DNA from: Planctomycetaceae bacterium
Lineage (GTDB): Bacteria; Planctomycetota; Planctomycetia; Pirellulales; UBA1268
DNA: 44,853 bases
Direction: 5' to 3'
NCBI GenBank assembly: GCA_011523305.1
Contig: WTHB01000187.1
Location: forward strand, 1 to 44,853
How positions within the stretch are numbered: position 1 is the first letter of the stretch; the number at the start of each line of letters is the position of its first letter. The notes under the pieces were generated by a model. That model did not search any database and was not told the DNA's origin. It saw only the letters and a program-made list of their open reading frames with translations. Shown here in pieces: positions 1-37,672 of the stretch. Both the position numbers and the translations under genes were made by a program.

Positions 1-1409
1 GTGCCGGGAAGGACTCCGCGGGAGACACCATCACTCGCAGCTGCGGGCAGGCTCCCTGCCATTCGCAGCCCCATGCGATCACTGGAGGACAGGGCCCGCA
101 GGGATGCCTCGGGAAGCGCGGCTATCGCGGGCTGGTCTGGCTCGGAGGGAATAAACCGCAGCGTTGTCCTGCCGCCCGGCGGCGTGATTGGGATCAGCGA
201 AGGAGAGAGACTCCACGAGTGGTCGGCAACGAGGTGCGCCGGCTGGTCGACGTGAAGCTGGTCGCCTGCAGCGAGTGGTCTGCCCGAAAGACCACCAAAG
301 CCGCCAGGCAGATAGGTGCTTCGGCTGCCAAGAATCCGGGGCACCGTCAGGCCGCCGGCAATGGCCAAATAGCCACGGCAACCCGAGGCAAGGTGACCGA
401 GTTCGAGGAGATCACCCGCTTGCATGGCCAGCGGTCGCAGCGTGGGCAGGCCGGCGAGGCCGCCGCCAGCGATGGCGATCGTGGTCGCGGCTTCGAACCG
501 CAGCGTCGGGCCGGTTAGGCTGAACTCTAGCACGGCAGCGGTGTCCTCATTTCCAACCAGCAGGTTTGCCAGCCGGGCCGACAGTCTGTCGGCCGCACCA
601 CCGCTGGGAACACCGGCAGCCCGGTGCCCCGGACGGCCTAGGTCCTGCACTGTGGTCAACAGCCCCGGTGTCAGCACGGTGGCGACGGGCCGAGCCCGCT
701 GGGCCGGAAGTGGGACGACCGCTGGCGGTGGCGTCGGCGTTGGTCGCTCGGCGGTCTCTCGGAACCGCAGCCGGTCGCCAACGTGCAGCCGGGCCGGCTG
801 CGGGGCGGTGACATCGAAGAGCGGAAAGTCGGTCCGGCCAATCAACTGCCATCCCCCCGGCGTGGCGAAGGGATAGATGCCGGTCTGGCTGCCACCGATG
901 CCGACTGAACCAGCCGGGATGCGGGTTCGCGGGGTCGCTCGCCGGGGCGTGGCGAGCTGCTCATCAAGTCCTGCCAGATAGGGGAAGCCAGGCGCGAAGC
1001 CGATCGCGGTGACGAGGTAGTCCGGCCCAGTGTGGAGACGAATCAGCGTCTCCATGCTGATGCGGTGGTGCCGGCAGACCGCATCACAGTCGGGGCCATC
1101 ATCAGCCCCGTAGCAGACGGGAACCTCATGGGTTGTGCCACCGGTGGAGCTCATGACGACAGTGTGCACCACCTCTGCGATGTGGGCTGTCAGGTTGGCC
1201 AGGCTGCTGATCACGAGGGGGTCGTAGACGACGGTGACGCAGTCTGGTGATGCGATGACATCGACGACCCCGGGCAGGGCCGCAGCCCTTACGGCCTGCG
1301 TCCAAGCCGCAAACTGCGGTGCACGTGCTTCCGCCGACAGAGAAAGATTCGCCGGCCGAATGACGATCGTGGTATCACTAGAGTGATTGATTCGTGGGAG
1401 ATCGGCCAT
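1..1409 (-). CDS. pxpBC: PxpB-PxpC fusion (5-oxoprolinase subunits B and C; KipI-KipA type), cut by the window edge
   Basis: The frame is open from an ATG at 1409 to the left edge, about 469 residues without a stop. Residues about 14-230 carry the KipI/PxpB fold with the signature GFAPGFPYLAGLD and the following PAGSVGIGG stretch. After a Pro-rich linker, residues about 250 onward carry the PxpC/KipA (allophanate hydrolase subunit 2-like) domain, with PGLLTTVQDLGRPG, a GGAAD stretch and later YLAIAGG and LGSRSTY. In the family, PxpA, PxpB and PxpC together hydrolyse 5-oxoproline to glutamate using ATP. Most bacteria encode PxpB and PxpC separately; here they are one chain. Roughly 60-70 C-terminal residues should lie outside the window. 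The start lies 16 bases after the FtsK-like gene stop, so it probably sits at the end of that transcript, although the functions look unrelated. No PxpA is visible in the window. Confidence 0.88.
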   Translation of the reverse strand, partial: MADLPRINHSSDTTIVIRPANLSLSAEARAPQFAAWTQAVRAAALPGVVDVIASPDCVTVVYDPLVISSLANLTAHIAEVVHTVVMSSTGGTTHEVPVCYGADDGPDCDAVCRHHRISMETLIRLHTGPDYLVTAIGFAPGFPYLAGLDEQLATPRRATPRTRIPAGSVGIGGSQTGIYPFATPGGWQLIGRTDFPLFDVTAPQPARLHVGDRLRFRETAERPTPTPPPAVVPLPAQRARPVATVLTPGLLTTVQDLGRPGHRAAGVPSGGAADRLSARLANLLVGNEDTAAVLEFSLTGPTLRFEAATTIAIAGGGLAGLPTLRPLAMQAGDLLELGHLASGCRGYLAIAGGLTVPRILGSRSTYLPGGFGGLSGRPLAAGDQLHVDQPAHLVADHSWSLSPSLIPITPPGGRTTLRFIPSEPDQPAIAALPEASLRALSSSDRMGLRMAGSLPAAASDGVSRGVLPG

Positions 1410-1425
1410 GCCTGTTCTCACTCAC

Positions 1426-4400
1426 TTACGAGTCACTGTCGTCGGGCGTGGCCGGCGTGTCGTCAGGGGTGTCCTCCGGTGGGTCGTCAAGCATTTTGGC
1501 GAAGTTGAATTCATCGGCACCAAAGCCATGCTTCAGCGAAAAGCCGCCGTCGTCATCGGGTGCCGGGGTGGCGGGCTGTGGAGCAGGCCGAGGACGATCG
1601 GCCGGCGTGCCCTGCGGGCGGCTGCGGAGTTTTTCGGAGACATTCGCCAGCCACTCGTCGCTGGGGAACTGATAGGGGCGGAATTTTTCCAGCGTGCCCG
1701 TCTCCTCGTGGACGAACAGGGCCCGCTGTTCGCCGAGTCGGCCGGCAGCCGGGTTTTCCACCAGTTGGCTCGAGTCGGTGCCGCTCATCTGGAAGAGCAC
1801 TCGCAGTTCAAACTCCTTGAGTGTGTTCCGCTCGAAGGTGCGTTGCAGGTTGGTCAGAGAGTCGCACCAAATGATGGCATGCACCCCCACTGTTGGACCG
1901 TCCTTGAGAATGGTCACGAGGTTCTGGGCGGGACTTGCCTTCTGCTCGCCTGACATCGAGAAGCCAAAGTCGTTCTCGTCACGGCGGCATTCACGGAATC
2001 GGCCCAGGTCACGGATGATGACAAACACACTTTCGGCATCGAGAATCTGCTCGTCGAGCCGACGCTGCACCTCGCCGGCCAGGTCAGCGAAGGCGTCGGC
2101 CACGCCGAGCCGCCCGACCGTTTCGAGTTCATGAGGCAGGAACTCCGTCAGCCGGCTGATCATGGTTTCCGGGTGCTCTTCGGCAATCGCCGGCTCCAGC
2201 AGGACGAACCGGGCCGCCTTGCCGATGCTGCCACCGGGGTGCGGGTCACTGCCGGCGGCCAGGCTGACGGTCGCCATTGCCAGAATGCGGGTCGCAAGGT
2301 CTTCCCGCTGGCCGACAATGAGCAGGTTGGTGCCACCCTGCCGTCGGAAGGTGGCAACGGTGGGGTCCTTGATGGCAATGGCATCGCCGAGCCAGGCCAA
2401 TGGGGCGATGGCGGGTTTCCCGCCAATCGTGCCAGCGTCGAGCAGTTCGCTGAGCAGACGGTTGGCTGCAGGGTCAGCAGCCTCGTTTCCGTCAAAGACC
2501 AAGCGGGGGAGCGCCGGAATGTCGCTGCGTGAATCAGCAAGAGCGCGGAGTTTGCCGAGAAATTTCTCCCGCCGCTCTTCGCCGAGCCAGACCACCTGGA
2601 ACGGGTGGTTGCCCTCGATCATGCCGTTGGCGTCGTTGTAGATCGCCTCACCCGGTCGGGTGAGGAGCCGGGCCGCCGTGTTGTCTTCGCTGAGAATCAG
2701 ACTGCTGTCGGCCTCGTTGCACTGCAATGCCACTCGGACTGCCATCTGGCCCATGGTTGCCCTCGGCAGGCTGTACGAGCCACCCAGGGTCTGCGAGCCG
2801 AGCAGGACGTGCATGCCGAAGGCACGGCCCTGACGGACCAGCCGGTCGAGCACCAGCGAGCAGTCCTGAGCGAGTTTGTCGTCTTCGACAAAAAGTTCCT
2901 GAAACTCGTCGATGATCAGCATGATCCTCGGCATCGGCTCAGGGTGGCCGCTAGCACGGTAGCCAGCCAGGTCCTGTACCGACAGATCGCGGAACAGGTC
3001 GCCGCGTCGCTTTAGTTCCCGGTCGAGTTGTTGGAGGACCGAAAGGCCAAATTCACGTTCGCTTTCGATGGCAATGACGCGGGCGTGCGGCAGGCGAAAA
3101 TGGTCGTAGAGTTTGAACTCAACGCCCTTTTTGAAGTCGATGAGATAGAACTGGATTTCGTTTGGGCTGTAGATCAGCGACAAGTTCGTGATCAGGGCGT
3201 GCATCATCGTCGACTTCCCGGAACCGGTCTTTCCCGCGATTAGCACATGCTGGCTGGTGCCCTTGCCGAGTTTCATGGACAGGGTCTTTTTCGCGCCGGC
3301 TGGACCCAGGGGCACGACAATTTCCTTGGCGGTGTCACCCGTCCACCAGGCGTCTTCCGGTGGGGCCACCCGCTCGAAGGGCACTTCGACTCGCTTGGCC
3401 GCGACCGCCTCCTTGCCGACCCGCTGCACAATCTTGGTGAAGGTCTGGTCATCTGGAGCGGTTTCAACGGTCAGCGGCCACTTGGAAAACTCCGGGTCGT
3501 TCCAGGTGAAACTGCCATCTTTCAGCAGGATCGTGGTGGCATAGGACTGGAGTTCCTCAAGGCTGAAGTTCGAGGGCGGGGTCTGTGAGGTGTCGATTGA
3601 GATAATGGGAATCACGCCACAGCGGGCCCCGGAACTGGCAATGCTCGCCAGCCTGCGAACGGCGGTCTCAGTGAAATTGGCCGGGAAGTTTGCGATGACC
3701 ACGAAGCGGTAGGGTTCGGGAACCTCTGCCTCAGCGTTGTAGTCACCGATCGAGGCATACTCGTTCCGGAGGTATTTCTGGATCACCATCTCCATCTGTT
3801 CCGTCACGATGCCAAGCCGCTCTTCGATCTGTCCTGGCTCGGTCCAGATGCGGCTGGAGACCAGTTGCTCGTCGTGATCGGCAAGATGCATGAAGCCGGC
3901 GAACTGCTTGCCGAGACCCAGGGGGTCGATGATGGTGAACAGGCTCTGCCCCGGCGGCAGTCCGGAGGCAATCCGCAGCATCAGTGCCTGGATCAAGGCG
4001 GAGGCGTGTTCCTTCTGGTCGGGCGGCGTCTTGATCAAAAGGGCGGCATCGTCAGGGAAGGTGGTGAACGCCGGCTGCTGCCAGCGTTCGGGCCCGAATT
4101 GATTGAGTTCCGCGTGGCTGGAAACACCACCGGGGATACCCGCAAGCGAAAGGTCGAGCTGGCCAAACCGGAGCCCGGGCGGGGGCGTGGTGGGCAAGGC
4201 AGCTGAGCCGTCGGCAAGGTCCTGCCAGCTGCGGAAGGCGTCGCGGTCGACCGCCTCAGCGGCGGCATAAATCTGCGTGGTCTCCTCGCGGGTGGTCCGC
4301 CAGGCGGCGGTCATGTCGGCCCATCGGGCCGTGCGCTGCTCCTCAATCGCCGTGAGTTGCTTTTGCTGGCGGGCTTCGATGCGAGTGATCTCTTGGTCAC

Positions 4401-5682
4401 GCTTCTGCTCGGCGTCTGCTATTTTGGGGGGATAGGTTTCGTCGAGAACTTTCAGCCCGCGTGCCTTCTTCTCGTCAAGCGCAGTGCAGCCAATCTGATA
4501 CTTCTGTTCGAGGGTGCGGATTTTTTCATCCCGTGCGGACGTTTGCGAAGCCGAGGCGTCTGCCATGGCCCCGTGGCGGTCTTGGGCCTCTTTTGCATGG
4601 CGGGCGGCGAGACGCTCTAGGTCACGCTCAAGCTTCTCGGCGACCGCGGACAAGGCAGCTGCATGACACTGGTCGAGCCGGTTGCAGGTTGCTGCCAATT
4701 GAGTGACCAGCGTTGCGGCCTCGGTCCGAGCCACCCCTTTTTGTCGTTTCTGCCACATCAGCCCGAAGCCAATGCCGGCAACCAGGGACACCCCGGCGGT
4801 GATGGCGGCGATCAGCGCCTTACTGCTCATGTCCATCGCCTGCAGCCCAAAGAACGAGCCCCCGCCCACCGCCACGGCGGCCAGGACAGGGATGACAAAG
4901 ACGAGGGCGGTTGTCCGGTCATCAAAGGCGCGGGCACTGCGAAGTTGCCGCAGGGCCTTGGCCTCGGCAGTGACGGTATCGGTCAACTCCTGGAAGTGGA
5001 CGAGCAGGTCCTTGCCTGTTGGCAGGGGAGGGTCGAGCGGCGGGGCCGTGGCGGCGGTGTCAGGAGGGACCTCAGCGTCCGCGTCGGAGGCTGGCGTGTC
5101 GTCCGATTCAGCCGGCGCGAACGCGATCTCAGCGGCGTTGCTCACGCCCCAACGGGTGAGCAGATCCTGGGTGCGGCTGAGGTCGTCAGCGATGGTGGTT
5201 CGAGTGGCATTGAGCTTCTTCTCGGCGGCCGCAGCTTTTTTTCGCGTGTCTTCCTGTTTGGCCTTGAGTTGTTCACCGACAGAGATCGCCTCGTATTCGA
5301 GGTCTTCGGTCCGCTCCTTCTCGCCCGCCTGCCATTCGCGGGCAATTTTGTCTTTCAGCGTTTCCAACTGCTGGTCGAGGGCCTGCCGCTCAGCCTCAAC
5401 CTGGCCTTCCAAGCGGGTTCGGTCGCGGATGAAATCGGCCTTGAGAGCGGCGGTCTCCTTGTCACATTGGTCTCGGACTTTCGCCAAGGCTGCCGCTGCC
5501 GCCTTTTTCAGTTTGGTGGTGGCCGCGTCGGATTCGCTGCTGATTTCGGTTTCGAGTGTGACGCGGGTGGCCGCCTCCTGACGCAACCGGGCCATCTGGT
5601 CGCGGAGCAGATTGCGGTCATAACAAGACCTGTACAACGGGGTGGATGAAGGCTGTGAGGTGGTCGAATCAGGTGCAGTCAT
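1426..5682 (-). CDS. FtsK/SpoIIIE-family membrane ATPase of a type VII secretion-like module (EssC/EccC-like)
   Basis: This 1418-residue protein begins with a long charged coiled coil (about 30-190), then two membrane segments (about 255-310) and a second coiled coil (to about 480). Three ATPase-like regions follow. The middle one is intact: Walker A GKTGSGKST near residue 815 and Walker B IMLIIDEFQE near 920, followed by the FtsK-type GSQTLGG stretch. The first (about 540-770) and third (about 1110-1380) keep the fold-like hydrophobic strands but show no Walker A. The tail is acidic. Type VII ATPases (EccC, EssC) also string several FtsK domains behind two membrane helices, and they export WXG100 proteins; two WXG100-like genes lie just upstream. 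Unlike EssC there is no visible N-terminal FHA domain. DNA translocation in division is a less likely role, since no gamma DNA-binding domain is seen at the C-terminus. The assignment to secretion is inferred from architecture and neighbours. Confidence 0.85.
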   Translation of the reverse strand: MTAPDSTTSQPSSTPLYRSCYDRNLLRDQMARLRQEAATRVTLETEISSESDAATTKLKKAAAAALAKVRDQCDKETAALKADFIRDRTRLEGQVEAERQALDQQLETLKDKIAREWQAGEKERTEDLEYEAISVGEQLKAKQEDTRKKAAAAEKKLNATRTTIADDLSRTQDLLTRWGVSNAAEIAFAPAESDDTPASDADAEVPPDTAATAPPLDPPLPTGKDLLVHFQELTDTVTAEAKALRQLRSARAFDDRTTALVFVIPVLAAVAVGGGSFFGLQAMDMSSKALIAAITAGVSLVAGIGFGLMWQKRQKGVARTEAATLVTQLAATCNRLDQCHAAALSAVAEKLERDLERLAARHAKEAQDRHGAMADASASQTSARDEKIRTLEQKYQIGCTALDEKKARGLKVLDETYPPKIADAEQKRDQEITRIEARQQKQLTAIEEQRTARWADMTAAWRTTREETTQIYAAAEAVDRDAFRSWQDLADGSAALPTTPPPGLRFGQLDLSLAGIPGGVSSHAELNQFGPERWQQPAFTTFPDDAALLIKTPPDQKEHASALIQALMLRIASGLPPGQSLFTIIDPLGLGKQFAGFMHLADHDEQLVSSRIWTEPGQIEERLGIVTEQMEMVIQKYLRNEYASIGDYNAEAEVPEPYRFVVIANFPANFTETAVRRLASIASSGARCGVIPIISIDTSQTPPSNFSLEELQSYATTILLKDGSFTWNDPEFSKWPLTVETAPDDQTFTKIVQRVGKEAVAAKRVEVPFERVAPPEDAWWTGDTAKEIVVPLGPAGAKKTLSMKLGKGTSQHVLIAGKTGSGKSTMMHALITNLSLIYSPNEIQFYLIDFKKGVEFKLYDHFRLPHARVIAIESEREFGLSVLQQLDRELKRRGDLFRDLSVQDLAGYRASGHPEPMPRIMLIIDEFQELFVEDDKLAQDCSLVLDRLVRQGRAFGMHVLLGSQTLGGSYSLPRATMGQMAVRVALQCNEADSSLILSEDNTAARLLTRPGEAIYNDANGMIEGNHPFQVVWLGEERREKFLGKLRALADSRSDIPALPRLVFDGNEAADPAANRLLSELLDAGTIGGKPAIAPLAWLGDAIAIKDPTVATFRRQGGTNLLIVGQREDLATRILAMATVSLAAGSDPHPGGSIGKAARFVLLEPAIAEEHPETMISRLTEFLPHELETVGRLGVADAFADLAGEVQRRLDEQILDAESVFVIIRDLGRFRECRRDENDFGFSMSGEQKASPAQNLVTILKDGPTVGVHAIIWCDSLTNLQRTFERNTLKEFELRVLFQMSGTDSSQLVENPAAGRLGEQRALFVHEETGTLEKFRPYQFPSDEWLANVSEKLRSRPQGTPADRPRPAPQPATPAPDDDGGFSLKHGFGADEFNFAKMLDDPPEDTPDDTPATPDDSDS

Positions 5683-5723
5683 GGCGTCTGAGAGTGGAAA
5701 AGGTGGGGAGATTGGCAGCCACG

Positions 5724-5960
5724 CTAGAACATGCCGCCATCGCTGACGTCGCGCTCAGCCCGGTCCAGGACCTCGGCAAGCCGCCCGATGGCTTCGAGCG
5801 TCTGCTTTACATCGGGCGTGAGGGGCATGATGTTCTCTTCGTGGAACTTGCGGGCGGTGGCGTCATCCCAGGTGTCGCGAGCATGTTCCCATTTGATGCC
5901 GAGCTGCTTCAGGGCCAGGGCCAACTTGGCTGCACCACTGGAGAGGTCGCAGGATCTCAT
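5724..5960 (-). CDS. Small helical protein, second WXG100-like candidate
   Basis: A 78-residue protein whose ATG overlaps the stop of the preceding gene by four bases (ATGA), a strong sign of real translation. The sequence looks like two helices around a turn, with W31-D-D33 followed at fixed spacing by K38-F39. The WXG100-like protein at 6590-6862 has the same W-x-D-x4-K-F spacing (W43, D45, K50, F51). The protein is a little shorter than a typical WXG100 member (about 100 residues) and ends in DGGMF. Its position between the 205-residue protein and the FtsK-like ATPase suggests a substrate or adaptor of that ATPase. This could instead be an unrelated helical chaperone; no named family is recognised with certainty. 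Confidence 0.72.
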   Translation of the reverse strand: MRSCDLSSGAAKLALALKQLGIKWEHARDTWDDATARKFHEENIMPLTPDVKQTLEAIGRLAEVLDRAERDVSDGGMF

Positions 5961-6574
5961 GATGCCTCTCCGTCAGCGGGCGGATTGGGGGTGTCGAGCG
6001 TGGCGGCGTCCGGGTCGGTGGCCTCATCGAGCTGGCGGGTGACCGAAGCAGCATCACCCGTGCCGCCGGTTTCGCTGCCTGTCTGGGGGCCGCTGACGGT
6101 CCGGTAGTGATCGAGCGCCGTGATCATTTTTTCGAGCCGGCCAATGGATCGGGGGCAGTCGACGTCGATCACCTCTCGGAAGCGGACCAGACGGACGCAG
6201 GCCTCACGGAACTGTTGGAGGACGACCGGGGTCCACCGCCGCACCAGTTCGGCCTTTTCTTCAGCCTGCTGCAGCCGCTTCCGCGCCTTCTCCAGGTTTT
6301 TCTTCTCTTCGGCGCAGGACGGCGTGTTGTCTCCCACCTTCTTGTAGGCCCGACAGTGTTCCAGGTCTTTGATCGCCTGGTTGACCGCCTCGGCAGCCCG
6401 ACGGATTTCGGCCTTCCAGTAGCCGGCCCGGTCGACGGTGATCCAGTCGATCCCCCGTTGCCCCTCGATTTCGATGTCGGCCAAGGCCTGGCCCGACTCA
6501 TGCGCATAGGCGATCAACGCCTGCTTGACGAAGGCGAGGGTGTCGGTCGATTTGACATCAGCCTGCGAGGACAT
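5957..6574 (-). CDS. Coiled-coil protein of the type VII-like module, unknown function
   Basis: A 205-residue protein I do not recognise by family. Residues 1-60 are mixed and contain the stretch GQRGIDWITVDRAGYW. Residues about 50-155 are strongly helical and charged, with a Lys/Glu-rich coiled coil (KKNLEKARKRLQQAEEK). The last 45 residues are an acidic, Thr/Ala/Pro-rich, probably disordered tail. There is no signal peptide or membrane segment. It starts 15 bases after the WXG100-like gene and overlaps the next gene by four bases, so the four genes look like one operon. The ATG has no clear Shine-Dalgarno sequence, which fits translational coupling to the upstream gene. It may be a cytosolic partner of the ATPase or a larger helical secretion substrate; this is inference from context. 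Confidence 0.75.
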   Translation of the reverse strand: MSSQADVKSTDTLAFVKQALIAYAHESGQALADIEIEGQRGIDWITVDRAGYWKAEIRRAAEAVNQAIKDLEHCRAYKKVGDNTPSCAEEKKNLEKARKRLQQAEEKAELVRRWTPVVLQQFREACVRLVRFREVIDVDCPRSIGRLEKMITALDHYRTVSGPQTGSETGGTGDAASVTRQLDEATDPDAATLDTPNPPADGEAS

Positions 6575-6589
6575 GAAGGCCCGGGAGCG

Positions 6590-6862
6590 TTAGCGTTGCT
6601 GCTGGTATTCCTCGACCCGTTCCGCCTTGCGGATCAGGTAAGGCACATATTCGCCGGTCGATTCGACGAACCGGGCAAACGTGGTGAGCTGCTGCTCGAA
6701 TTCTTCGGCAAACTTCTGGTGTTCCTGGTCGCGCCAGCTTGCTGAAAGAGCCTGCAGCTGCCGTTGGACGGTCTGCATCTGGGCGAGCACCTCGGTGCTG
6801 AAATGCCGCAGTCGCGAGGCAAAGCGGCGGAGTTCCTGTGGGTCGACAATGGCCTGTCCCAT
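6590..6862 (-). CDS. WXG100-family-like protein (ESAT-6/CFP-10 type)
   Basis: A 90-residue, all-helical protein. Two amphipathic helices flank a turn at SW43RDQEHQKF, where a WXG100 protein would have its Trp-x-Gly hairpin; here the glycine is replaced by Asp (W-R-D). The length and layout match WXG100 proteins, which form four-helix-bundle dimers and are exported by FtsK-type ATPases. No canonical C-terminal YxxxD/E export motif is seen; the tail is ERVEEYQQQR. The gene is the first of a four-gene minus-strand operon ending in the FtsK-like ATPase. An AGAGGA box lies about nine bases upstream of the ATG. A promoter for the operon should lie in 6863-7064, shared divergently with hemQ. Confidence 0.82.
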   Translation of the reverse strand: MGQAIVDPQELRRFASRLRHFSTEVLAQMQTVQRQLQALSASWRDQEHQKFAEEFEQQLTTFARFVESTGEYVPYLIRKAERVEEYQQQR

Positions 6863-29553: not shown

Positions 29554-31200
29554 ATGAAAATGAAATCGCGTCTCGATTGGATGGCGACGTGTGGCAAGGG
29601 CTGCTGGCACTGGTTGCGTGCCAGCGGGTTTGCGCTGTTAGGTATTCTGTGCGCGAGTGAAATGCCCTACGAATTGGCTTTTGCAGCAGACCCAACTCCG
29701 CCGTTTCGATATGAGGCTACATGGGAGTCACTCGACTCTCGCCCCCTTCCGGCATGGTTTTCTGACGCCAAGTTCGGGATTTTTATTCATTGGGGTTTGT
29801 ATTCCGTTCCTGCCTGGTCGCCTCGTGGAACATACGCAGAGTGGTACTGGCATTCAAAAGACGGAATTCCAGGAAAGCATGCTGCGAAGGTCGCAAGATC
29901 AAACGCGGTGAATGAGTTCCACAATCGTGTTTATGGCAAGGATTTTGCCTACGAAGACTTTCGGCCGCTTTTTACGTGTGAGTTATTTGACCCCGCACAA
30001 TGGGCAAAAATTTTCCGCCGAAGTGGTGCAAAGTACGTTGTGCTGACGTCAAAGCATCACGACGGCTACTGCCTATGGCCAAGTGTTGAAGCGTCGAAAA
30101 GTTTTGATATGGCATGGAACAGTGCCGAGTCGGGCCCCCATCGTGACCTTGTTGGAGATCTTACGGCTGCGGTGCGGGCTGAGGGCCTCAAGATGGGCCT
30201 GTATTACTCGATCTGGGATTGGTTCAACCCGTATTGGCCGGAATCGCTCCAGTCCTACGGTGGAAATAAGCCGGTCTCAGAGGAAAGTGACGCAGCCCGT
30301 CAGCGGTATATTCGTGAGGTCATGTATCCACAATTCAAACAACTTGTGCGGAACTATCACCCCTCGTTGATTTTCTCTGACGGGGATTGGTGGTTGGATG
30401 ATGAGAAGTGGGAGACAAAACCGCTATTGGCATGGCTCTTTAATAATGCTCCCAATAAAGACGAGGTGGTCATCAATGATAGATGGGGAAAGGTGCGGGG
30501 TGTGCATGGTGGCTATTACACGACCGAATACGGTGCTGGTTTTGATGATCCAACCGTCGCCTGGGAAGAGAATCGTGGGATTGGAATGTCGTTTGGGCTG
30601 AATCGAGAAGAGACCTATGACGACTACAATTCTGCAGAACAGCTGATCTTGATGCTTGTTGATACAGTTTCACGTGGGGGAAACCTTTTGCTCGATGTCG
30701 GTCCGACGCATGATGGGCGCATTCCGGTGATCATGGAGGAACGCCTTTCTGAGATCGGGAGCTGGTTGGAGGTGAACGGAGAGGCAATCTATGGCACTCG
30801 ACGATGGGTTGTTGATGCTCAGTGGAGCGAGGGAAAGCGGCCAGAATTCACCAAGGAAGACCATCATTCCGGCGTGGCTCTACGGGAGTCAACAATTGAA
30901 CCGAAGTCTGGCAATGCAGCTCGGACTGCTATGTTCACACGGAAAGGTGACACGCTTTATGCGATGACTCCTGGGTGGCCGAAAGGAGATCACATTGTAA
31001 TTCAGGGGGTGAGGGCATCGACTGAGACGAACGTTTCCCTGCTTGGTTGTGAGCGGGCATTGTCTTGGAAGCAGCAAGGCAATTCAGTCAGAGTCGATCT
31101 ACGTACAGTCGGTATTCATGACCTGCCGTGCGAATATGTTTTTGTCTTCCGGCTGGAAAAAGTCTCCCCAGTTGATATTGCCAAGGAAGGAGCAGAGTGA
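29554..31200 (+). CDS. Alpha-L-fucosidase, GH29 (first of three)
   Basis: A 548-residue exported enzyme with a signal peptide at about residues 22-46 (FALLGILCASEMPYELAFAADP). GH29 marks are WFSDAKFGIFIHWGLYSVPAW, VLTSKHHDGYCLWPS and GVGVR-like later loops. The putative nucleophile is D276 in LIFSDGDWW, aligned with the GH29 nucleophile in the strand after HPSL. The C-terminal 100 residues are a small beta domain. GH29 enzymes remove terminal alpha-L-fucose with retention. It carries an AAAGGGG box and starts a tandem run of three GH29 genes three bases apart from the next. The region is visibly less GC-rich than the housekeeping genes, which may reflect acquisition or relaxed codon bias. Confidence 0.95.
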   Translation: MKMKSRLDWMATCGKGCWHWLRASGFALLGILCASEMPYELAFAADPTPPFRYEATWESLDSRPLPAWFSDAKFGIFIHWGLYSVPAWSPRGTYAEWYWHSKDGIPGKHAAKVARSNAVNEFHNRVYGKDFAYEDFRPLFTCELFDPAQWAKIFRRSGAKYVVLTSKHHDGYCLWPSVEASKSFDMAWNSAESGPHRDLVGDLTAAVRAEGLKMGLYYSIWDWFNPYWPESLQSYGGNKPVSEESDAARQRYIREVMYPQFKQLVRNYHPSLIFSDGDWWLDDEKWETKPLLAWLFNNAPNKDEVVINDRWGKVRGVHGGYYTTEYGAGFDDPTVAWEENRGIGMSFGLNREETYDDYNSAEQLILMLVDTVSRGGNLLLDVGPTHDGRIPVIMEERLSEIGSWLEVNGEAIYGTRRWVVDAQWSEGKRPEFTKEDHHSGVALRESTIEPKSGNAARTAMFTRKGDTLYAMTPGWPKGDHIVIQGVRASTETNVSLLGCERALSWKQQGNSVRVDLRTVGIHDLPCEYVFVFRLEKVSPVDIAKEGAE

Positions 31201-31203
31201 GCG

Positions 31204-32712
31204 ATGCGAATACGGCGGAGTTTTGTCGCGTGTTGTTTTGCAATTCTTGTTGTGTGCTTGAGCAGCAGCGGTCGGGCTCATGCTGAGGGGCAGTTTGAGC
31301 CCACAATCGATTCGCTCCAGAAGTACACATGTCCCGATTGGTTTCGTGACGCGAAGTTCGGGATCTACCTGCACTGGGGTCCCTATTCTGTCGCTGAACG
31401 TGGTGAGTGGTACGCCCGACGCCTTTACGAGGAAGGCAGTGAGGAATACGTCCATCATCTCAAGCACTACGGACATCCATCGGAAGTTGGTTACAAAGAC
31501 CTGATCCCGCTGTGGAAAGCTGAGCGGTTCGATCCCGATGCGCTATTAGCGATCTTTCGTCAGGCCGGGGCGAAATACTTCACTCCTTGTGCCGTTCATC
31601 ACGACAATTTCGATCTTTGGAATTCACCACACCAAAAGTGGAACGCCGTCAACATGGGGCCGGAGAAAGACCTCATTGGCATGTGGCGAGCGGCCACCCT
31701 GAAAGCAGGTCTTCGTTTTGGCGTGACGACACACCTATCGCGGAGCTACAGTTGGCTCAATGTGGCAAACCAGACGGACCAAGGTGGTGCTAAAAAGGGG
31801 GTGCCCTATGATGGTGGCCAGGGGCGGGGAAAAGGCCTTTATCCGCCGAATGATGGGCAGAGTACCCACCCGCGGGCTCCGCTGAACGCGCCAAAACAGT
31901 GGAGAGACCAGTGGAGCAGGCGGCTTCGTCAACTGGTCGATGACTATCAGCCGGATGTTTTGTATTTCGACTGTGCCGTGCCTTTTCGAGGAGATGATGA
32001 GGGGCGTACGGGCCTAGGTGTTTTAGCGCACTATTACAATAGACGCCCCGAGGGCGTCATGTGTATGAAAGAGCGTCCTTGGCAGGGACTTTATGCCGAT
32101 GGAATTGCCACGCTTGATTTCGAAAGAGGCAAGGCCAGCCACATCCTGTCGGAGCCTTGGCAGACGGACGACTCAATCGGCTCGTGGGGATATGACACTC
32201 GAAAGCCGTATACGACGTCAGATCTACAGATCGACAAACTTATCGATATTGTCAGCAAAAATGGGAATTTGCTCCTCAATATCCCAATTCGTGCTGACGG
32301 TACTCTCGATGAGACTGCAACGGCGATTCTCAAGGACATGGGGAAATGGTTTCAGGTAAACGGCGAGGGCATCTACGGCACAAGACCCTGGTTCTATTTT
32401 GGTGAAGGAAAAGTCAACGAGATCCCCCATTTCGTTGAGCAGTCGCCATTCACATTTCGTGATATTCGGTACACCAAAAAGGGAAATGCCTTGTATGCAT
32501 TTGTGCTGAAGTGGCCACCGAAGCACAAAGATTTCGTGGAGTTTCAGCTACTCGCGGGCGGCAATCAGCGGCTGTCGAAGATCAAGTCGGTTGAGTTGCT
32601 TGGCTATGAGGAAGACTTGGTGTGGGAGCGTCATCCCGATGGTCTACGGGTATTTTTTCCCAGCAAGCCCCCCACAGACTTTGCCCACTGCTTAAAGATA
32701 GAAATTGAGTGA
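31204..32712 (+). CDS. Alpha-L-fucosidase, GH29 (second of three)
   Basis: A 502-residue exported enzyme with a signal peptide MRIRRSFVACCFAILVVCLS, cleaved near AHAEG. GH29 marks are DWFRDAKFGIYLHWGPYSVAE, YFTPCAVHHDNFDLWNS and ISGNGNLLLN-type ending (DIVSKNGNLLLNIP). The putative nucleophile is D256 in VLYFDCAVPF. It is more similar to the third copy than to the first, by motif. It starts three bases after the first fucosidase stop, so it is translated from the same mRNA. The substrate is probably a fucose-containing glycan; linkage cannot be told from sequence. Confidence 0.95.
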   Translation: MRIRRSFVACCFAILVVCLSSSGRAHAEGQFEPTIDSLQKYTCPDWFRDAKFGIYLHWGPYSVAERGEWYARRLYEEGSEEYVHHLKHYGHPSEVGYKDLIPLWKAERFDPDALLAIFRQAGAKYFTPCAVHHDNFDLWNSPHQKWNAVNMGPEKDLIGMWRAATLKAGLRFGVTTHLSRSYSWLNVANQTDQGGAKKGVPYDGGQGRGKGLYPPNDGQSTHPRAPLNAPKQWRDQWSRRLRQLVDDYQPDVLYFDCAVPFRGDDEGRTGLGVLAHYYNRRPEGVMCMKERPWQGLYADGIATLDFERGKASHILSEPWQTDDSIGSWGYDTRKPYTTSDLQIDKLIDIVSKNGNLLLNIPIRADGTLDETATAILKDMGKWFQVNGEGIYGTRPWFYFGEGKVNEIPHFVEQSPFTFRDIRYTKKGNALYAFVLKWPPKHKDFVEFQLLAGGNQRLSKIKSVELLGYEEDLVWERHPDGLRVFFPSKPPTDFAHCLKIEIE

Positions 32713-32748
32713 GACGCGTCTGGTTGCTTAGGAAAAGGTGAATCGCGC

Positions 32749-34359
32749 ATGCGAAATCGTAGTGGTGTGTTGTTTGTTTGTGGAATTTCAGCCCTTCACG
32801 CATTGCTTGTATCGCAAGCCTTCGCCGAGCCGTTCTTTCCGGAATGGAAATCTCTTGCTCGACATGAACAAGCACCGGACTGGTTCCGTGATGCGAAATT
32901 TGGCATCTACTTCCACTGGGGGCCTTATTCAGTCCCGGCGTTTGGGAATGAGCATTACCCCCGCACGATGTACGGGCACGTGAGTGGAAAATCACCCCAG
33001 CCACAGAAAGCAGTCGTAGCAGGGATTGGTTTTCAGACATATCGCGAACACGAATTTCACATCCGTCATTACGGTCAGCCAAAAGATTTTGAGTACCACG
33101 ACTTTTTTCCGCTCTTTACGGCCAAGTCATTCAATGCCGAAGAGTGGGCTGACCTGTTCTTTTTGGCAGGGGCAAAGTTCGCTGGGCCTGTCGCAATGCA
33201 CCACGATGGGTTCGCTATGTGGGACTCTCAAGTAACGCCATGGAATAGCGTTGCCCTTGGACCTCGAAGAGATATTGTTGGTGAGATTGCTCACGCCATT
33301 CGAAAGCGTGGGATGAAGCTGATTACAACGTTTCATCACGCAAAATTAGGACGAGCAGCTGAGTCGGATCCGCAGAAGCATCGCTGGCATTATCTTGGGC
33401 GTCAGAAGTATTTTGAGCGTGTTGCCCCAGAGCGGCTCTCTCAAGGAGGGGCAGCGCTGGAAAAGCTCTATGGGACAATGCCATGGCAAGAGTTTTTATC
33501 GCTCTGGAAAGAGTTGCTCGCGGAAGTTGTCGATTTGTATGAGCCCGACATTGTTTGGTTTGACTCGTGGCTCGATCGGATTCCATCAGCAACCCAGCGG
33601 GAGTTTCTCTCCTACTACTTCAATAAGGCGGCAGAGTCTGGAAGAAAGGTGGTCGTAACTTACAAGCAGGAAGACTTGCCAGCGGGCATCGGTGTTGTTG
33701 ATTTTGAAAAGGGACGACTTGATCAGTCAACAGACTTTTCATGGCTCACAGATGACACCATCAGCGCGGGTTCCTGGACGACGACTGGAAGCTGGTCCTA
33801 CACGGAAGAGCTTGATATTAAGCCGGCCAAAGAATTGGTGCATACGCTAGTTGATATCGTCAGCAAAAACGGAAACCTGCTGCTCAATGTGTCGCCGACT
33901 GCTGAGGGGACCATTCCAGAGGCTCAGCGTTCAAGTTTGCTTCAGATGGGAGAGTGGCTTCGTGCGAATGGAGAGGCCATTTATGGCACACGTCCTTACC
34001 GTATCTATGGCGAAGGTCCGAAGCGGTTAGAGACAAGCGGGCACTTCGTTGAGATGAGCGGGGAGTATACAAGTGAGAATATTCGGTTCACGCAACGGGG
34101 GGATGTGATCTATGCGATTCAGCTCGGGTGGCCAGGCTCAGAGCGACAGGTGAAGGTCAAAAGCCTCGGAAAACTGGCAACGCAAGACCTTTTGATCCGT
34201 CGTGTGTCGGTGCTCGATTCCCCAGAGGCTATTGAGTGGGTGCATGCAGACGACGCACTCGTCGTGACCGCTCCTTTTGTTGCCCCAAATAAAATTGCGC
34301 TGTGCTTCAAGATCGAGACGCAGGTGATTGAGGAGGGGGCGAGAGCGGGCAGTCAATAA
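32749..34359 (+). CDS. Alpha-L-fucosidase, GH29 (third of three)
   Basis: A 536-residue exported enzyme with a signal peptide about 1-26 (cleavage near SQAFAEP). It has APDWFRDAKFGIYFHWGPYSVPAF, FAGPVAMHHDGFAMWDS, the putative nucleophile D272 in IVWFDSWLD, and the conserved DIVSKNGNLLLNVSPTAEG before the C-terminal domain. An AGGAAAAGG box precedes the ATG, and the gene starts 36 bases after the second fucosidase. Three adjacent divergent GH29 copies suggest different fucose linkages rather than simple dosage; that is inference. Confidence 0.95.
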   Translation: MRNRSGVLFVCGISALHALLVSQAFAEPFFPEWKSLARHEQAPDWFRDAKFGIYFHWGPYSVPAFGNEHYPRTMYGHVSGKSPQPQKAVVAGIGFQTYREHEFHIRHYGQPKDFEYHDFFPLFTAKSFNAEEWADLFFLAGAKFAGPVAMHHDGFAMWDSQVTPWNSVALGPRRDIVGEIAHAIRKRGMKLITTFHHAKLGRAAESDPQKHRWHYLGRQKYFERVAPERLSQGGAALEKLYGTMPWQEFLSLWKELLAEVVDLYEPDIVWFDSWLDRIPSATQREFLSYYFNKAAESGRKVVVTYKQEDLPAGIGVVDFEKGRLDQSTDFSWLTDDTISAGSWTTTGSWSYTEELDIKPAKELVHTLVDIVSKNGNLLLNVSPTAEGTIPEAQRSSLLQMGEWLRANGEAIYGTRPYRIYGEGPKRLETSGHFVEMSGEYTSENIRFTQRGDVIYAIQLGWPGSERQVKVKSLGKLATQDLLIRRVSVLDSPEAIEWVHADDALVVTAPFVAPNKIALCFKIETQVIEEGARAGSQ

Positions 34360-34639
34360 GTGTCGCGAGGAGGCGTAGGGAAAAGTGCATTCCTTTTCTT
34401 CGTGGGCCGGGTTTTTTTCTGCCGACTTCAAATTGAGTCGGTGCGCCCGTGTCAGTAATGCAATTTGACAATGCCAACAGATGGTGGCCATCTGCTCGCA
34501 TGCTGTCAGCGATGCGTACTGAATGCAGGGTTTTAGGGAATTCTGAGGAGAAAAATAATAAAAACTCGCTTGCGACCTTTTCAGGAGGACACTCAATGTT
34601 CGTCCCCGACCGCGTGTTTCAACTTTGAGAGATGTGCCG
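34360..34639. other. Intergenic region between the third fucosidase and a sulfatase
   Basis: About 280 bases without a gene. A weak hairpin GAAAAG (34380-34385) / CTTTTC (34393-34398) followed by a T7 run (34412-34418) could end the fucosidase transcript. AT-rich sequence near 34545-34565 could hold the promoter of the sulfatase. Confidence 0.4.
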
Positions 34640-36079
34640 ATGCTAAAACTTGTCCGATTTGGGGTGATGGCCGCACTCTTGCTAGTCGCGTCTACGCCTT
34701 TTCTTTCGGCGGCTGACCAGCAACCCAACATCGTTGTTTTGTTTGCTGATGACCTCGGTTACGGTGAACTGAGCTGTCAAGGTAACCCTGAAATTCCCAC
34801 GCCGCATATTGACTCGATCGCCAGCAATGGTGTGCGTTTTACCGACGGCTATGTAGCCGGCCCGAACTGCAGTCCCTCACGAGCGGGATTCTTAACTGGG
34901 CGAATCCCGACTCGCTTTGGTTATGAATTCAATCCGATCGGTGCGGTCAATGAGCACCCTGGTGTCGGCCTACCGGCTGCTGAGGTTACGATAGCTGAGA
35001 CGTTACGGAACGCTGGTTACACGACTGGGCTCATCGGAAAATGGCATCAGGGTGGCACGGCGGACTATCATCCTTTTCGGCACGGCTTCGATGAGTTCTT
35101 TGGGTTTCTGCACGAGGGCCATTCCTTCATTCCGCCACCATACGAAGGCGTTACGACGATGCTGCGCCGCAAGAGTTTGCCACATGGGAAAAAGGGCCGT
35201 TGGGTCGGAAAAAAAGGGCTCGTCTACACTGATCATATGGGTGAAAACGAGCCCGACTACGATGCCGACAACCCCATTTATCGTGGCGGCCAACCCGTTG
35301 TAGAAACCGAATACTTGACCGATGCACTGACCCGCGAAGCTGTTGACTTTATAGACCGTCACGATGACAAACCATTTTTTCTTTACCTTGCCTACAACGC
35401 AGTCCATAGCCCTCTTCAGGGGGCGAGCGCCTACATGCAGAAGTTTGCGCACATCGAAGATATCCACCGCCGCATTTTTGCTGCCATGCTGTCGAACATG
35501 GATGATAGTGTTGGCGCTGTCTTAACGCAGCTACGAAAGTCAGGGCTTGAAGAAGATACGATCGTGTTTTTTCTGAGCGATAATGGTGGGCCAACTCGTG
35601 AACTAACTTCTAGTAATTTGCCATTACGAGGATCGAAAGGGCAAATGTATGAAGGCGGCTTGCGGGTGCCGTTCTTGATGCAGTGGAAAGGAAAAGTTCC
35701 AGCAGGCCAGACGTACGAGAAACCAGTTTGCGCATTCGATATTTATGCGACTGCGGCGGCCAATAGTGTTGGCGTCATCGCGCCTGAGTTGGTTGAAGGT
35801 GTTGACTTAGTTCCCTTCGTCACGGGCAAGGACACCGGTACCCCACACGGAACACTCTTCTGGCGTCAGGGTGGCAAGTCCGGATTGCGGCACGGTGACT
35901 GGAAGATCGTGCGTATGGGCGGTCGAAAAACGGACCGCAAAGTGAAGTGGGAACTCTATGACCTTGAGAACGATGTCTCTGAAGAAACGAATGTCGCTGA
36001 TGTTCAACCTGAACGTCTTGCCGAATTGGTGGCACTTTGGCAGGAAATGAATAGCGAAATGGCGGAGCCGATGTTTTGA
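34640..36079 (+). CDS. Secreted sulfatase (S1 family, CSPSR)
   Basis: A 479-residue sulfatase starting at ATG 34640; the signal peptide spans residues about 1-25 (MAALLLVASTPFLSAADQ). The metal-site start is NIVVLFADDLGYG. The formylglycine motif is C77-S-P-S-R. Later marks are TGLIGKWHQG and FFLSDNGGPTRE, then LYDLENDVSEETN near the C-terminus. It would hydrolyse sulfate esters, probably from a polysaccharide outside the cytoplasm, after maturation by a formylglycine-generating enzyme or anSME not seen in the window. It lies downstream of three fucosidases on the same strand, a context that suggests sulfated fucan. An IS3-type element follows 46 bases after its stop. Confidence 0.95.
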   Translation: MLKLVRFGVMAALLLVASTPFLSAADQQPNIVVLFADDLGYGELSCQGNPEIPTPHIDSIASNGVRFTDGYVAGPNCSPSRAGFLTGRIPTRFGYEFNPIGAVNEHPGVGLPAAEVTIAETLRNAGYTTGLIGKWHQGGTADYHPFRHGFDEFFGFLHEGHSFIPPPYEGVTTMLRRKSLPHGKKGRWVGKKGLVYTDHMGENEPDYDADNPIYRGGQPVVETEYLTDALTREAVDFIDRHDDKPFFLYLAYNAVHSPLQGASAYMQKFAHIEDIHRRIFAAMLSNMDDSVGAVLTQLRKSGLEEDTIVFFLSDNGGPTRELTSSNLPLRGSKGQMYEGGLRVPFLMQWKGKVPAGQTYEKPVCAFDIYATAAANSVGVIAPELVEGVDLVPFVTGKDTGTPHGTLFWRQGGKSGLRHGDWKIVRMGGRKTDRKVKWELYDLENDVSEETNVADVQPERLAELVALWQEMNSEMAEPMF

Positions 36080-36125
36080 TCGCCATCGGACGTTTTTTAT
36101 CGAGTCGAAGCAAGGTGGCCTGCCT

Positions 36126-36157
36126 TGGAAATCCCGATCCAGTTGATATGAAGGTCT
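36126..36157 (+). repeat. Left terminal inverted repeat of the IS3-type element
   Basis: Matches the right end at 23 of 32 positions when reverse-complemented, including TGGA at the tip, CCAG, and the run GATATGA inside. Confidence 0.75.
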
Positions 36158-36184
36158 ACCGCCCTGAGGGCAAGGAGACTTTCA

Positions 36185-36493
36185 ATGACGAAGAGACGAC
36201 GGAAGAAGCACCGTCCTGAGGAGATTGTCGCGAAGCTGCGAGACGCTGATGCGATGCTCAACGCGGGCAAGGATCTTGCAGCAGTGTTGCAGGCCTTGGA
36301 GATCAGCGAGTCGACGCTTGATCGCTGGCGGGCCGGGCACCGCCGCGGAGCGGTGGTCGGCGGTGGGATGAAGTGTGAGGAAGCGACGCGGCTAAAGCAT
36401 CTTGAGGACGAGAACAAGCGACTCAAGACCTTGGTTGCTGACTTGTCCCTAGACAACCAGATGCTCAAGCACCTTTCGGAGGGAAACTGGTAA
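36185..36493 (+). CDS. IS3-family transposase OrfA (DNA-binding subunit)
   Basis: A 102-residue protein with a basic start (MTKRRRKKHRPEEIV), a helix-turn-helix (about 10-55, AVLQALEISESTLDRWR) and a leucine-zipper-like helix (about 65-95, LEDENKRLKTLVADLSLDNQMLK). In IS3 elements OrfA binds the inverted repeats, and the zipper mediates multimerisation. It overlaps orfB, and a slippery heptamer sits just before its stop, so OrfA and the fused OrfAB would both be made. Confidence 0.93.
   Translation: MTKRRRKKHRPEEIVAKLRDADAMLNAGKDLAAVLQALEISESTLDRWRAGHRRGAVVGGGMKCEEATRLKHLEDENKRLKTLVADLSLDNQMLKHLSEGNW
36481..36487 (+). other. Probable programmed -1 frameshift site G GGA AAC
   Basis: GGGAAAC fits the X XXY YYZ slippery pattern in the orfA frame (G-GGA-AAC), two codons before the orfA stop. 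Slipping back one base joins orfA to the orfB frame, which continues as GKLVSPSRKREAV. Frameshifting at such a site is established for IS3 elements; use of this exact heptamer here is inferred. Confidence 0.65.
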
Positions 36494-37386
36494 GCCCTTC
36501 CCGGAAGAGAGAGGCAGTCGCAGAACTCCAGCGAGAGTTCAGCGTCTCCGAGCGAAGGGCGTGTAAGGTGGTTAATCAGCCGCGTAGCAGTCAGCGATTC
36601 AAGGCCAAGCCCCGAACGGATGAGGCGCCGCTCGTGAAGCGGATGCTGCAGCTGGCGAGAGCGAAGCCGCGGTATGGATATTGCCGGATTGGCTGGCTAC
36701 TTCGAGAAGAAGGATGGCGTGCTGGGTTGTCTCGAGTATTTCGACTGTGGCAGCGGGAGGGGCTGAAAGTGCCTGTAAAGAAGCGAAAAAGGCGTCGTTT
36801 GGAATCGAGTGCCAATGGATACCATCGGCGAAGGGCCGAGACGCCCAACGACGTGTGGTGCTGGGACTTCGTGTTCGACAGGACGGCCCGCGGTAGCCAA
36901 CTGAAGTGGCTATCGGTCGTTGACGGGTACACCCGCGAGTGCTTAGCCTTGAAGGTGGACCGAGGGATCACGAGCGAGGATGTGATCGACACGCTCGCCG
37001 AATTGTTCGCGATGCATGGTGTGCCCCGGCACATTCGCAGCGACAACGGGCCCGTGTTCGTTGCCAAGGCGTTGCGGCATTGGCTTGAGAAGGTAGGAGT
37101 CGGCACGCTCTACATCGAGCCGGGGAGCCCCTGGGAAAACGGCTTTGCCGAGAGCTTCCACGGGCGATTCCGCGATGAGTTCCTGGCGATGGAGATCTTC
37201 GAGGGTGTCCGGGCTGCCCGGACGCTTACTGCCGCTTGGAAGGACGAATGCAACACCCAGCGACCACACAGTTCGTTGGGTTATCGGACCCCGGCCGGGT
37301 TGGCCGCCGCGTGTGCGGCTTCCGCCTCGGCCAAGGCCTCGGCTCCAGCCGCACACGCGATCTGGGGGGAGGCAACCTGTTCCTAA
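36481..37386 (+). CDS. IS3-family transposase OrfB (DDE integrase core), read by -1 frameshift from orfA
   Basis: The frame begins in the orfA overlap and runs to 37386; a stand-alone start would be the GTG at 36568. An HTH_21-like segment (PRYGYCRIGWLLREEGW) precedes the rve integrase core, with the catalytic triad D in CWDFVFD, D in IRSDNGPVF and E in ENGFAESFHGRFRDE. The stop lies at the inner edge of the right inverted repeat. The fused OrfAB of about 400 residues would be the active transposase. No truncation or internal stop is seen. Confidence 0.9.
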   Translation, partial: GKLVSPSRKREAVAELQREFSVSERRACKVVNQPRSSQRFKAKPRTDEAPLVKRMLQLARAKPRYGYCRIGWLLREEGWRAGLSRVFRLWQREGLKVPVKKRKRRRLESSANGYHRRRAETPNDVWCWDFVFDRTARGSQLKWLSVVDGYTRECLALKVDRGITSEDVIDTLAELFAMHGVPRHIRSDNGPVFVAKALRHWLEKVGVGTLYIEPGSPWENGFAESFHGRFRDEFLAMEIFEGVRAARTLTAAWKDECNTQRPHSSLGYRTPAGLAAACAASASAKASAPAAHAIWGEATCS

Positions 37387-37416
37387 ACCCTCATATCGCC
37401 TGGTGCAGGAAATCCA
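37385..37416 (-). repeat. Right terminal inverted repeat of the IS3-type element
   Basis: Reverse complement of the left end at 23 of 32 positions. It starts in the orfB stop codon. Confidence 0.75.
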
Positions 37417-37672
37417 ACCCGGTCAAGTGCAAATCCTTTCAGGAAGTCGAAACTGAACGCTTTGGCGGGTGAAAGAATCTGGAAGTCAAAAATAGCAAAA
37501 AGGCGGTTTGCTACGTAGGAAATAGTCTTCGCACGTAATTCATTGGTTTTTCACCCCGTAGGCAACAAGGGCAGGTGTCCTTCGATTGCACGGGTTGATG
37601 ATCAGTGCAGGGAACTGGAAGATATGGTCGTGCAGATACGAGAGCAGGCCAGGCAGCGGATGGAGAGGTGTA

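What the first reader, a model, noticed from the sequence alone, without database searches (positions are those of the whole stretch)
1426..6862. Minimal type VII secretion-like operon in a planctomycete
Four genes in one minus-strand run encode a WXG100-like protein, a coiled-coil protein, a second WXG100-like protein and a two-helix membrane ATPase with FtsK domains. No EccB, EccD, EccE, EsaA or mycosin homologue is visible, so this may be a minimal or alternative export system. The N-terminal coiled coil replacing the FHA domain of EssC is unusual.
Basis: partly seen in the sequence, partly recalled or inferred. Interest (0 to 1): 0.8.

Follow-up and report, generated by a model that had tools for sequence, protein, structure and literature searches.

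The report
Planctomycete-wide minimal type VII-like exporter
Four neighbouring genes in a planctomycete encode a membrane motor related to the tuberculosis-type (type VII) protein exporter plus three small helical partner proteins; genomes across the phylum Planctomycetota keep or lose the set together, even where the genes are scattered, so it is very probably one machine, and what it exports is unknown.

Summary
Four minus-strand genes (wxgA 6862-6590, coiled-coil "cc" 6574-5957, wxgB 5960-5724, ATPase 5682-1426) form one operon. [quoted passage not shown] Its closest solved relatives by sequence and by Foldseek are type VII ATPases (EccC, EssC, YukB); no FtsK gamma domain was found. In 149 genomes drawn from the phylum, ATPase and wxgA occur in the same 19, and cc in 18 of those; none of the other 130 has any of the three. 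In several genomes the parts lie at unlinked loci yet are all kept. No EsaA or YukC homologue was found, and YukD in only one genome of 16. It is a real T7SS-like system with a short parts list, but not a new kind: Zhang et al. 2012 described this ATPase type with solo WXG proteins in a note naming planctomycetes, and wxgA's best solved relative is H. pylori HP0062. New here: phylum-wide, largely vertical, single-copy inheritance; cc as a predicted long helical hairpin; and its profile link to a plasmid-borne cargo-like protein. Export itself is inferred.

The parts
6590..6862 (-). wxgA: WXG100-family helical hairpin protein, 90 aa, with a W-R-D bend motif and a conserved C-terminus ending E-Y-x-x-Q-R
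   Evidence: Pfam WXG100 E=5.7e-9; invariant W43-R44-D45 and C-terminus; profile hits H. pylori HP0062 3fx7 E=4.7e-10 and EsxB E=2e-8
5957..6574 (-). cc: 205-aa protein, predicted antiparallel two-helix hairpin (helices 8-80 and 88-160) with a disordered tail (161-205); proposed cargo or delivery protein
   Evidence: AlphaFold2 mean pLDDT 86; one copy per ATPase-positive genome; Imm33-like domain at its C-terminus in Phycisphaerales; profile match to the N-terminus of a Rhodococcus plasmid protein
5724..5960 (-). wxgB: second, diverged WXG100-like helical protein, 78 aa, W-x-D motif
   Evidence: invariant W31 and D33; family profile matches EsxA 2vs0 E=0.0076
1426..5682 (-). EccC/EssC-related membrane ATPase, 1418 aa
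   Evidence: FtsK_SpoIIIE E=4.3e-30; NCBIfam EccCa E=2.6e-31, below its whole-protein cut-off; PDB best hit EccC 4nh0 E=3.5e-33
5113..5625 (-). ATPase N-terminal coiled coil (residues ~20-190), in the place of EssC's FHA domains
   Evidence: sequence; no FHA match; present but poorly conserved in sequence in homologues
4759..4905 (-). two predicted transmembrane helices (residues 260-278 and 290-308)
   Evidence: hydropathy; two helices in 21 of 22 homologues, one in the other; not found in four plasmid relatives
3400..4245 (-). first ATPase-like domain (residues ~480-761), no Walker A; resembles the EccC DUF domain
   Evidence: model residues 1-282 align with EccC5 DUF 8rin, Z=16.0, 221 residues, rmsd 3.8
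2581..3393 (-). middle FtsK domain (residues ~764-1034) with intact Walker A GKTGSGKS (817-824) and Walker B D925-E926
   Evidence: Walker residues invariant apart from a G822 change in one homologue
1660..2493 (-). third, degenerate ATPase domain (residues ~1064-1341), no Walker A, ending in the conserved LEKFRPY motif
   Evidence: model residues 585-862 align with type VII ATPase domains such as 6jd5, Z=21.7; alignment

Best explanation
This is a minimal type VII-like protein export system. The 1418-residue ATPase sits in the inner membrane through two helices, with a long coiled coil on the cytoplasmic side, and oligomerises (probably a hexamer) into a motor in which only the middle FtsK domain hydrolyses ATP; the flanking domains are structural or substrate-binding. 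wxgA and wxgB pair as W-x-D hairpins, either as substrates themselves or as escorts. They bring cc, a long helical hairpin with a disordered tail, to the motor, which moves it across the inner membrane. cc stands in the position that cargo-like proteins occupy in related plasmid operons, so it is proposed to be a fixed, non-toxic cargo or the bare delivery domain of an ancestral effector. Shown: gene content, operon order, ATPase architecture and ancestry, strict co-occurrence. Inferred: hexamer, heterodimer, direction and substrate of transport.
For: ATPase: best matches are EccC, EccC5 and YukB by sequence and EccC by Foldseek over the whole core; its first domain matches the EccC DUF. Partner: wxgA is a WXG100 protein. 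Unit: ATPase and wxgA in the same 19 of 149 phylum genomes, cc in 18 of the 19, none in the rest. Components are retained although unlinked in the closed genome G122 (wxgA 2.50 Mb, cc and wxgB 4.30 Mb, ATPase 5.92 Mb), in G203 and in others. Cargo idea: a Helicobacter plasmid has wxgA, a WHH nuclease, a SUKH immunity-type gene, a 77-aa gene, then the ATPase; the cc profile matches a Rhodococcus plasmid protein beside such an ATPase at E=6.5e-6, against a best of 4.3e-3 in 44 coiled-coil controls and 0.019 in 100 shuffles; cc carries an Imm33-like domain in some lineages. Cysteines 74 and 87 at the hairpin tip: both in 43, only the second in 13, neither in 28 of 84 distinct sequences, never the first alone, as a disulfide in an oxidising compartment would give.
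Against: No secretion data exist for any member in the sources read. Plasmid relatives of the ATPase lack the two membrane helices, so relatives can work without a built-in membrane anchor. EsaA and YukC homologues are absent and nothing for the outer membrane is known. No WXG100 protein other than the operon's own passed the cut-off in the genomes searched, so no variable substrate is evident. The cc-to-cargo link is good only for Rhodococcus, moderate for Deinococcus, at control level for Caballeronia and absent by sequence for Helicobacter. Co-occurrence counts are not corrected for phylogeny.
Confidence: 0.62

Rival explanations
1. The four proteins form an intracellular, membrane-attached FtsK/HerA-type complex (DNA handling, conflict or stress response) in which the WXG-like hairpins are regulators and nothing is exported.
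For: Plasmid relatives lack the membrane helices; one carries a TerD domain and one stands among VWA, PP2C, kinase and CARF genes; FtsK motor domains score as high as EccC by the structural aligner.
Against: Sequence and Foldseek rank EccC/EssC/YukB above FtsK; no gamma domain; two conserved membrane helices in planctomycetes; WXG100 partners are otherwise known with type VII ATPases (PMC11217815).
Confidence: 0.25
2. It is an active anti-bacterial toxin exporter whose toxins have been overlooked in planctomycetes.
For: A Helicobacter plasmid relative carries a nuclease and an immunity-type gene in the same operon; cc carries an Imm33-like domain in Phycisphaerales.
Against: One WXG100 above cut-off and one cc gene per positive genome searched; cc usually ends in a low-complexity tail, not a catalytic domain; gene neighbours vary and show no recurrent toxin-immunity pair.
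Confidence: 0.1
3. The small genes are chance neighbours of an ordinary FtsK-like translocase.
For: wxgB and cc are short and have little or no domain signal alone.
Against: Order conserved across the phylum; co-occurrence even when unlinked; wxgA is 50-66% identical at order level.
Confidence: 0.01

Closest known systems
Solo-WXG systems with a three-domain YueA-like ATPase of which only the middle domain is active (Zhang et al. 2012, PMC3482391, Table 1 note 6)
   Same: Same ATPase layout and solo WXG proteins; planctomycetes are named there.
Helicobacter pylori HP0062 / HP0066 (PMC3397514, PMC4978471)
   Same: HP0062 is the best solved relative of wxgA, with the same W-R-D bend and a gene cluster with an FtsK/SpoIIIE protein; WxG plus FtsK is called a minimal T7SS set in PMC4978471.
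   Different: The related Helicobacter plasmid ATPase examined here lacks the two membrane helices and its operon carries a nuclease; HP0066 itself was not examined.
T7SSa (ESX: EccC, EsxA/B)
   Same: EccC-like membrane ATPase with two N-terminal helices and a DUF-like first domain; WXG100 hairpin pair.
   Different: One ATPase domain fewer; long N-terminal coiled coil; EccB not found (without a positive control); YukD-like domain absent in 15 of 16 genomes.
T7SSb (Ess/Yuk: EssC, EsxA)
   Same: Membrane ATPase with FtsK domains plus a small WXG100 protein.
   Different: No FHA domains, no EsaA or YukC homologue; only one intact Walker A.
T7SSc-T7SSj (Garrett et al. 2024, PMC11217815)
   Same: Meets the two-gene core (ATPase and WXG100) used there.
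   Different: Those subtypes are reported only from Bacillota and Actinomycetota; their other components were not compared here.

Membership tests
Type VII secretion system (broad sense: EccC/EssC-type ATPase plus WXG100 protein) | Membrane-anchored ATPase of the EccC/EssC kind with several FtsK-like domains | tested here: met
   one ATPase domain fewer than EccC
Type VII secretion system (broad sense: EccC/EssC-type ATPase plus WXG100 protein) | Co-conserved WXG100 protein | tested here: met
   bend motif is W-R-D, as in HP0062
Type VII secretion system (broad sense: EccC/EssC-type ATPase plus WXG100 protein) | Demonstrated secretion of WXG100 proteins | not testable with these tools
   needs an experiment
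T7SSb | EsaA and EssB/YukC membrane components | tested here: not met
   EsaA N-terminus 0/19, YukC 0/16, positive controls rang
T7SSb | Ubiquitin-like EsaB/YukD | tested here: not met
   1/16 genomes, unlinked to the ATPase
T7SSb | FHA domains at the ATPase N-terminus | tested here: not met
   no FHA match
T7SSa (ESX) | EccB | tested here: inconclusive
   0/16 but no control genome rang
T7SSa (ESX) | EccE and mycosin | not tested
   no family search made
Zhang 2012 solo-WXG / three-domain ATPase class | Three FtsK/HerA domains with only the middle one active | tested here: met
   Walker A only in the middle domain across 22 homologues; three folded domains
Zhang 2012 solo-WXG / three-domain ATPase class | Mobile | tested here: not met
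   single copy, present in nearly all of the window's family; tree groups family members. Plasmid relatives do exist elsewhere
FtsK/SpoIIIE DNA translocase | C-terminal gamma DNA-recognition domain | tested here: not met
   no such Pfam match at E up to 1

The most novel reading that the evidence does not exclude
A diderm phylum uses an ancestral, stripped-down type VII machine as a conserved house-keeping exporter: the ATPase alone forms the inner-membrane channel, and it exports a fixed long helical hairpin protein (cc), the toxin-free counterpart of effector delivery domains, perhaps as an envelope or surface structure.
Probability: 0.3. Interest if true: 0.8.

Novelty: new variant of a known kind. 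Interest (0 to 1): 0.55.

Why it matters
T7SS work centres on Gram-positive bacteria and mycobacteria, where the export channel needs several extra membrane proteins. A co-inherited set of one ATPase and three small hairpin proteins in diderm planctomycetes would be close to the smallest such machine, and makes testable which parts of type VII export are truly essential. It also offers culturable, non-pathogenic hosts (for example Singulisphaera acidiphila, Limnoglobus roseus) for that test.

Tried and rejected
Chance clustering of unrelated genes: rejected by co-occurrence. DNA translocase with gamma domain: rejected. Viral origin: a scan of viral contigs with the planctomycete profile found no relative; a scan with the plasmid ATPase alignment gave 28 weak matches, not pursued. 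Fold search with the cc hairpin was uninformative, returning only generic long hairpins with no match at E<=0.001. The wxgB profile search in PDB was topped by short TALE-repeat segment matches, judged spurious; EsxA below them covers most of the hairpin. Direct homology of cc to the Caballeronia and Helicobacter cargo-position proteins was not supported. No tRNA or Rfam match in the window. Promoter and terminator scans gave nothing useful.

Full report
OBSERVATION. The four ORFs exist as described, in one minus-strand run. wxgA (6862-6590, 90 aa) is a WXG100 protein above Pfam's cut-off; wxgB (5960-5724, 78 aa) is only weakly so; cc (6574-5957, 205 aa) has no Pfam family; the 1418-aa product (5682-1426) holds an FtsK_SpoIIIE domain at residues 786-965. 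NCBIfam's nearest model is EccCa, below its whole-protein cut-off. The next gene downstream (1421 to the window's left end) looks like a fused 5-oxoprolinase PxpB-PxpC (by reading) and is not part of the conserved set: neighbours outside the four genes vary.

ATPASE. Sequence search of PDB gives EccC (4nh0, 3.5e-33), EccC5 and YukB before FtsK, and a 43-member profile gives the same order. The alignment of 22 homologues shows a conserved Walker A (GKTGSGKS) only in the middle domain; the first and third domains have none. Two hydrophobic helices near residue 270 occur in 21 of 22. A predicted model of residues 480-1365 (mean pLDDT 83) has three domains. Foldseek's best hit is the EccC cytoplasmic part over the whole length (E=6e-32), FtsK following at 5e-13. 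The structural aligner puts FtsK motor domains and EccC/EssC at similar Z (25.9 and 24.9), but EccC/EssC align over 464-726 residues against about 260; the first domain matches the EccC DUF domain (8rin, Z 16.0). The simplest reading is helices, stalk, DUF-like domain, active domain, degenerate domain: one ATPase domain fewer than EccC. Which one was lost cannot be told.

SMALL PROTEINS. wxgA is 50-66% identical at order level, with invariant W-R-D; its profile's best solved relative is H. pylori HP0062 (E=4.7e-10), then EsxB. HP0062 has the same WRD bend and lies in a cluster with an FtsK/SpoIIIE protein (PMC3397514). wxgB keeps W31 and D33 and matches EsxA weakly. cc is predicted as two ~73-residue antiparallel helices with a disordered tail (pLDDT 86). 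Cys74 and Cys87 flank its tip: of 84 distinct sequences 43 have both, 13 only the second, 28 neither, none only the first.

CO-CONSERVATION. The ATPase is present in nearly all sampled genomes of the window's family and most families of the order. The order wxgA-cc-wxgB-ATPase recurs in most order-level loci and in named Planctomycetota including Singulisphaera, Limnoglobus, Gemmataceae and Phycisphaerales. In 22 chosen genomes every ATPase-positive one (16) had a WXG100 gene above the cut-off; of the six ATPase-negative ones five had no hit and one a weak hit below the cut-off in a 1440-aa frame. cc: one copy in the same 16, none in the six. In 149 phylum genomes, ATPase and wxgA share the same 19, cc 18 of them (missing in G205) and none elsewhere. 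Fisher p is about 2e-24 without phylogenetic correction. Within-family contrasts exist: family f21 has genera with all parts and one genus with none. In closed genome G122 wxgA, cc-wxgB and the ATPase lie at 2.50, 4.30 and 5.92 Mb; G203, G234 and G174 are also dispersed, and in G066 the ATPase is apart from the small genes. Retention without linkage argues for one functional unit. The tree of ATPases groups family members and keeps Phycisphaerales and Gemmatales together, with some open forks: largely vertical, not mobile, in this phylum.

OTHER T7SS PARTS. EsaA N-terminus 0/19, YukC 0/16, YukD 1/16 unlinked; EccB 0/16 without a ringing control.

RELATIVES ELSEWHERE. Plasmids of Rhodococcus, Deinococcus, Caballeronia and Helicobacter carry three-domain relatives (aligned), all four without the two membrane helices. 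The Helicobacter operon reads: wxgA-like, WHH-nuclease protein, SUKH immunity-type gene, 77-aa gene, ATPase. Caballeronia has wxgA, a 436-aa protein, two small genes and the ATPase, next to VWA, PP2C, kinase and CARF genes. In Rhodococcus a 314-aa protein follows the ATPase; the cc profile matches its first 140 residues at E=6.5e-6, against a best of 4.3e-3 in 44 coiled-coil control segments and 0.019 in 100 shuffles; Deinococcus gives 1.1e-4, Caballeronia 4e-3 (control level), Helicobacter nothing. In Phycisphaerales cc itself ends in an Imm33-like domain (1.4e-14 and 1.2e-10). Hence the proposal that cc is a cargo or delivery protein; it rests mainly on position and one good profile match.

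PRIOR KNOWLEDGE. Zhang et al. [quoted passage not shown] An H. pylori pan-genome study calls WxG plus FtsK a minimal T7SS set, citing HP0062 and HP0066, and lists an FtsK and HNH/EndoVII nuclease cluster as core (PMC4978471). Garrett et al. 2024 list T7SSc-j only in Bacillota and Actinomycetota (PMC11217815). In the held library no paper was found that describes the planctomycete operon; subscription papers are mostly not held.

VERDICT. A real, co-inherited, T7SS-like system; a new variant of a known, little-studied kind. Export, partner pairing and cargo are inferred.

Noticed in passing
window 29554-39088: Three tandem alpha-L-fucosidase-like ORFs followed by two sulfatase-like ORFs around an IS3-type transposase-like ORF (36568-37386); GC falls to 0.51-0.53 at 30-36 kb against about 0.58-0.67 elsewhere in the window. 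Looks like an acquired sulfated-fucan degradation cluster; named by reading only.
   Followed up: no
window 5957-6574, cc residues ~176-183: Short motif S-[VMI]-[AT]-R-[QPS]-x-[DE]-[DE] in the disordered tail of cc, at a nearly fixed position in 22 of 83 distinct homologues (0.03 expected from shuffled tails), mostly close relatives but also one Phycisphaerales member. A possible docking or export signal.
   Followed up: partly
L178:4042-10569 (genome G205): This planctomycete has wxgA, then a separate 119-aa protein with hydrophobic helices, then an ATPase of ~1006 aa without its own N-terminal helices, then a 983-aa protein; no cc found. The membrane anchor may be a separate gene there.
   Followed up: partly
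L140:2037-7371: A 10.4-kb contig filed as a phage from human faeces encodes a related ATPase followed by a 349-aa protein with a weak WXG-like N-terminus and, by eye, an HExxH-type motif.
   Followed up: no
L136:8492-12460: The Rhodococcus plasmid ATPase carries a TerD domain at its N-terminus (E=4.4e-19) where the planctomycete protein has coiled coil and membrane helices.
   Followed up: no
window 3-1421: A fused 5-oxoprolinase PxpB-PxpC-like ORF starts 4 nt after the ATPase stop, so the two may be co-transcribed here; not seen as a recurrent neighbour in order-level loci.
   Followed up: no
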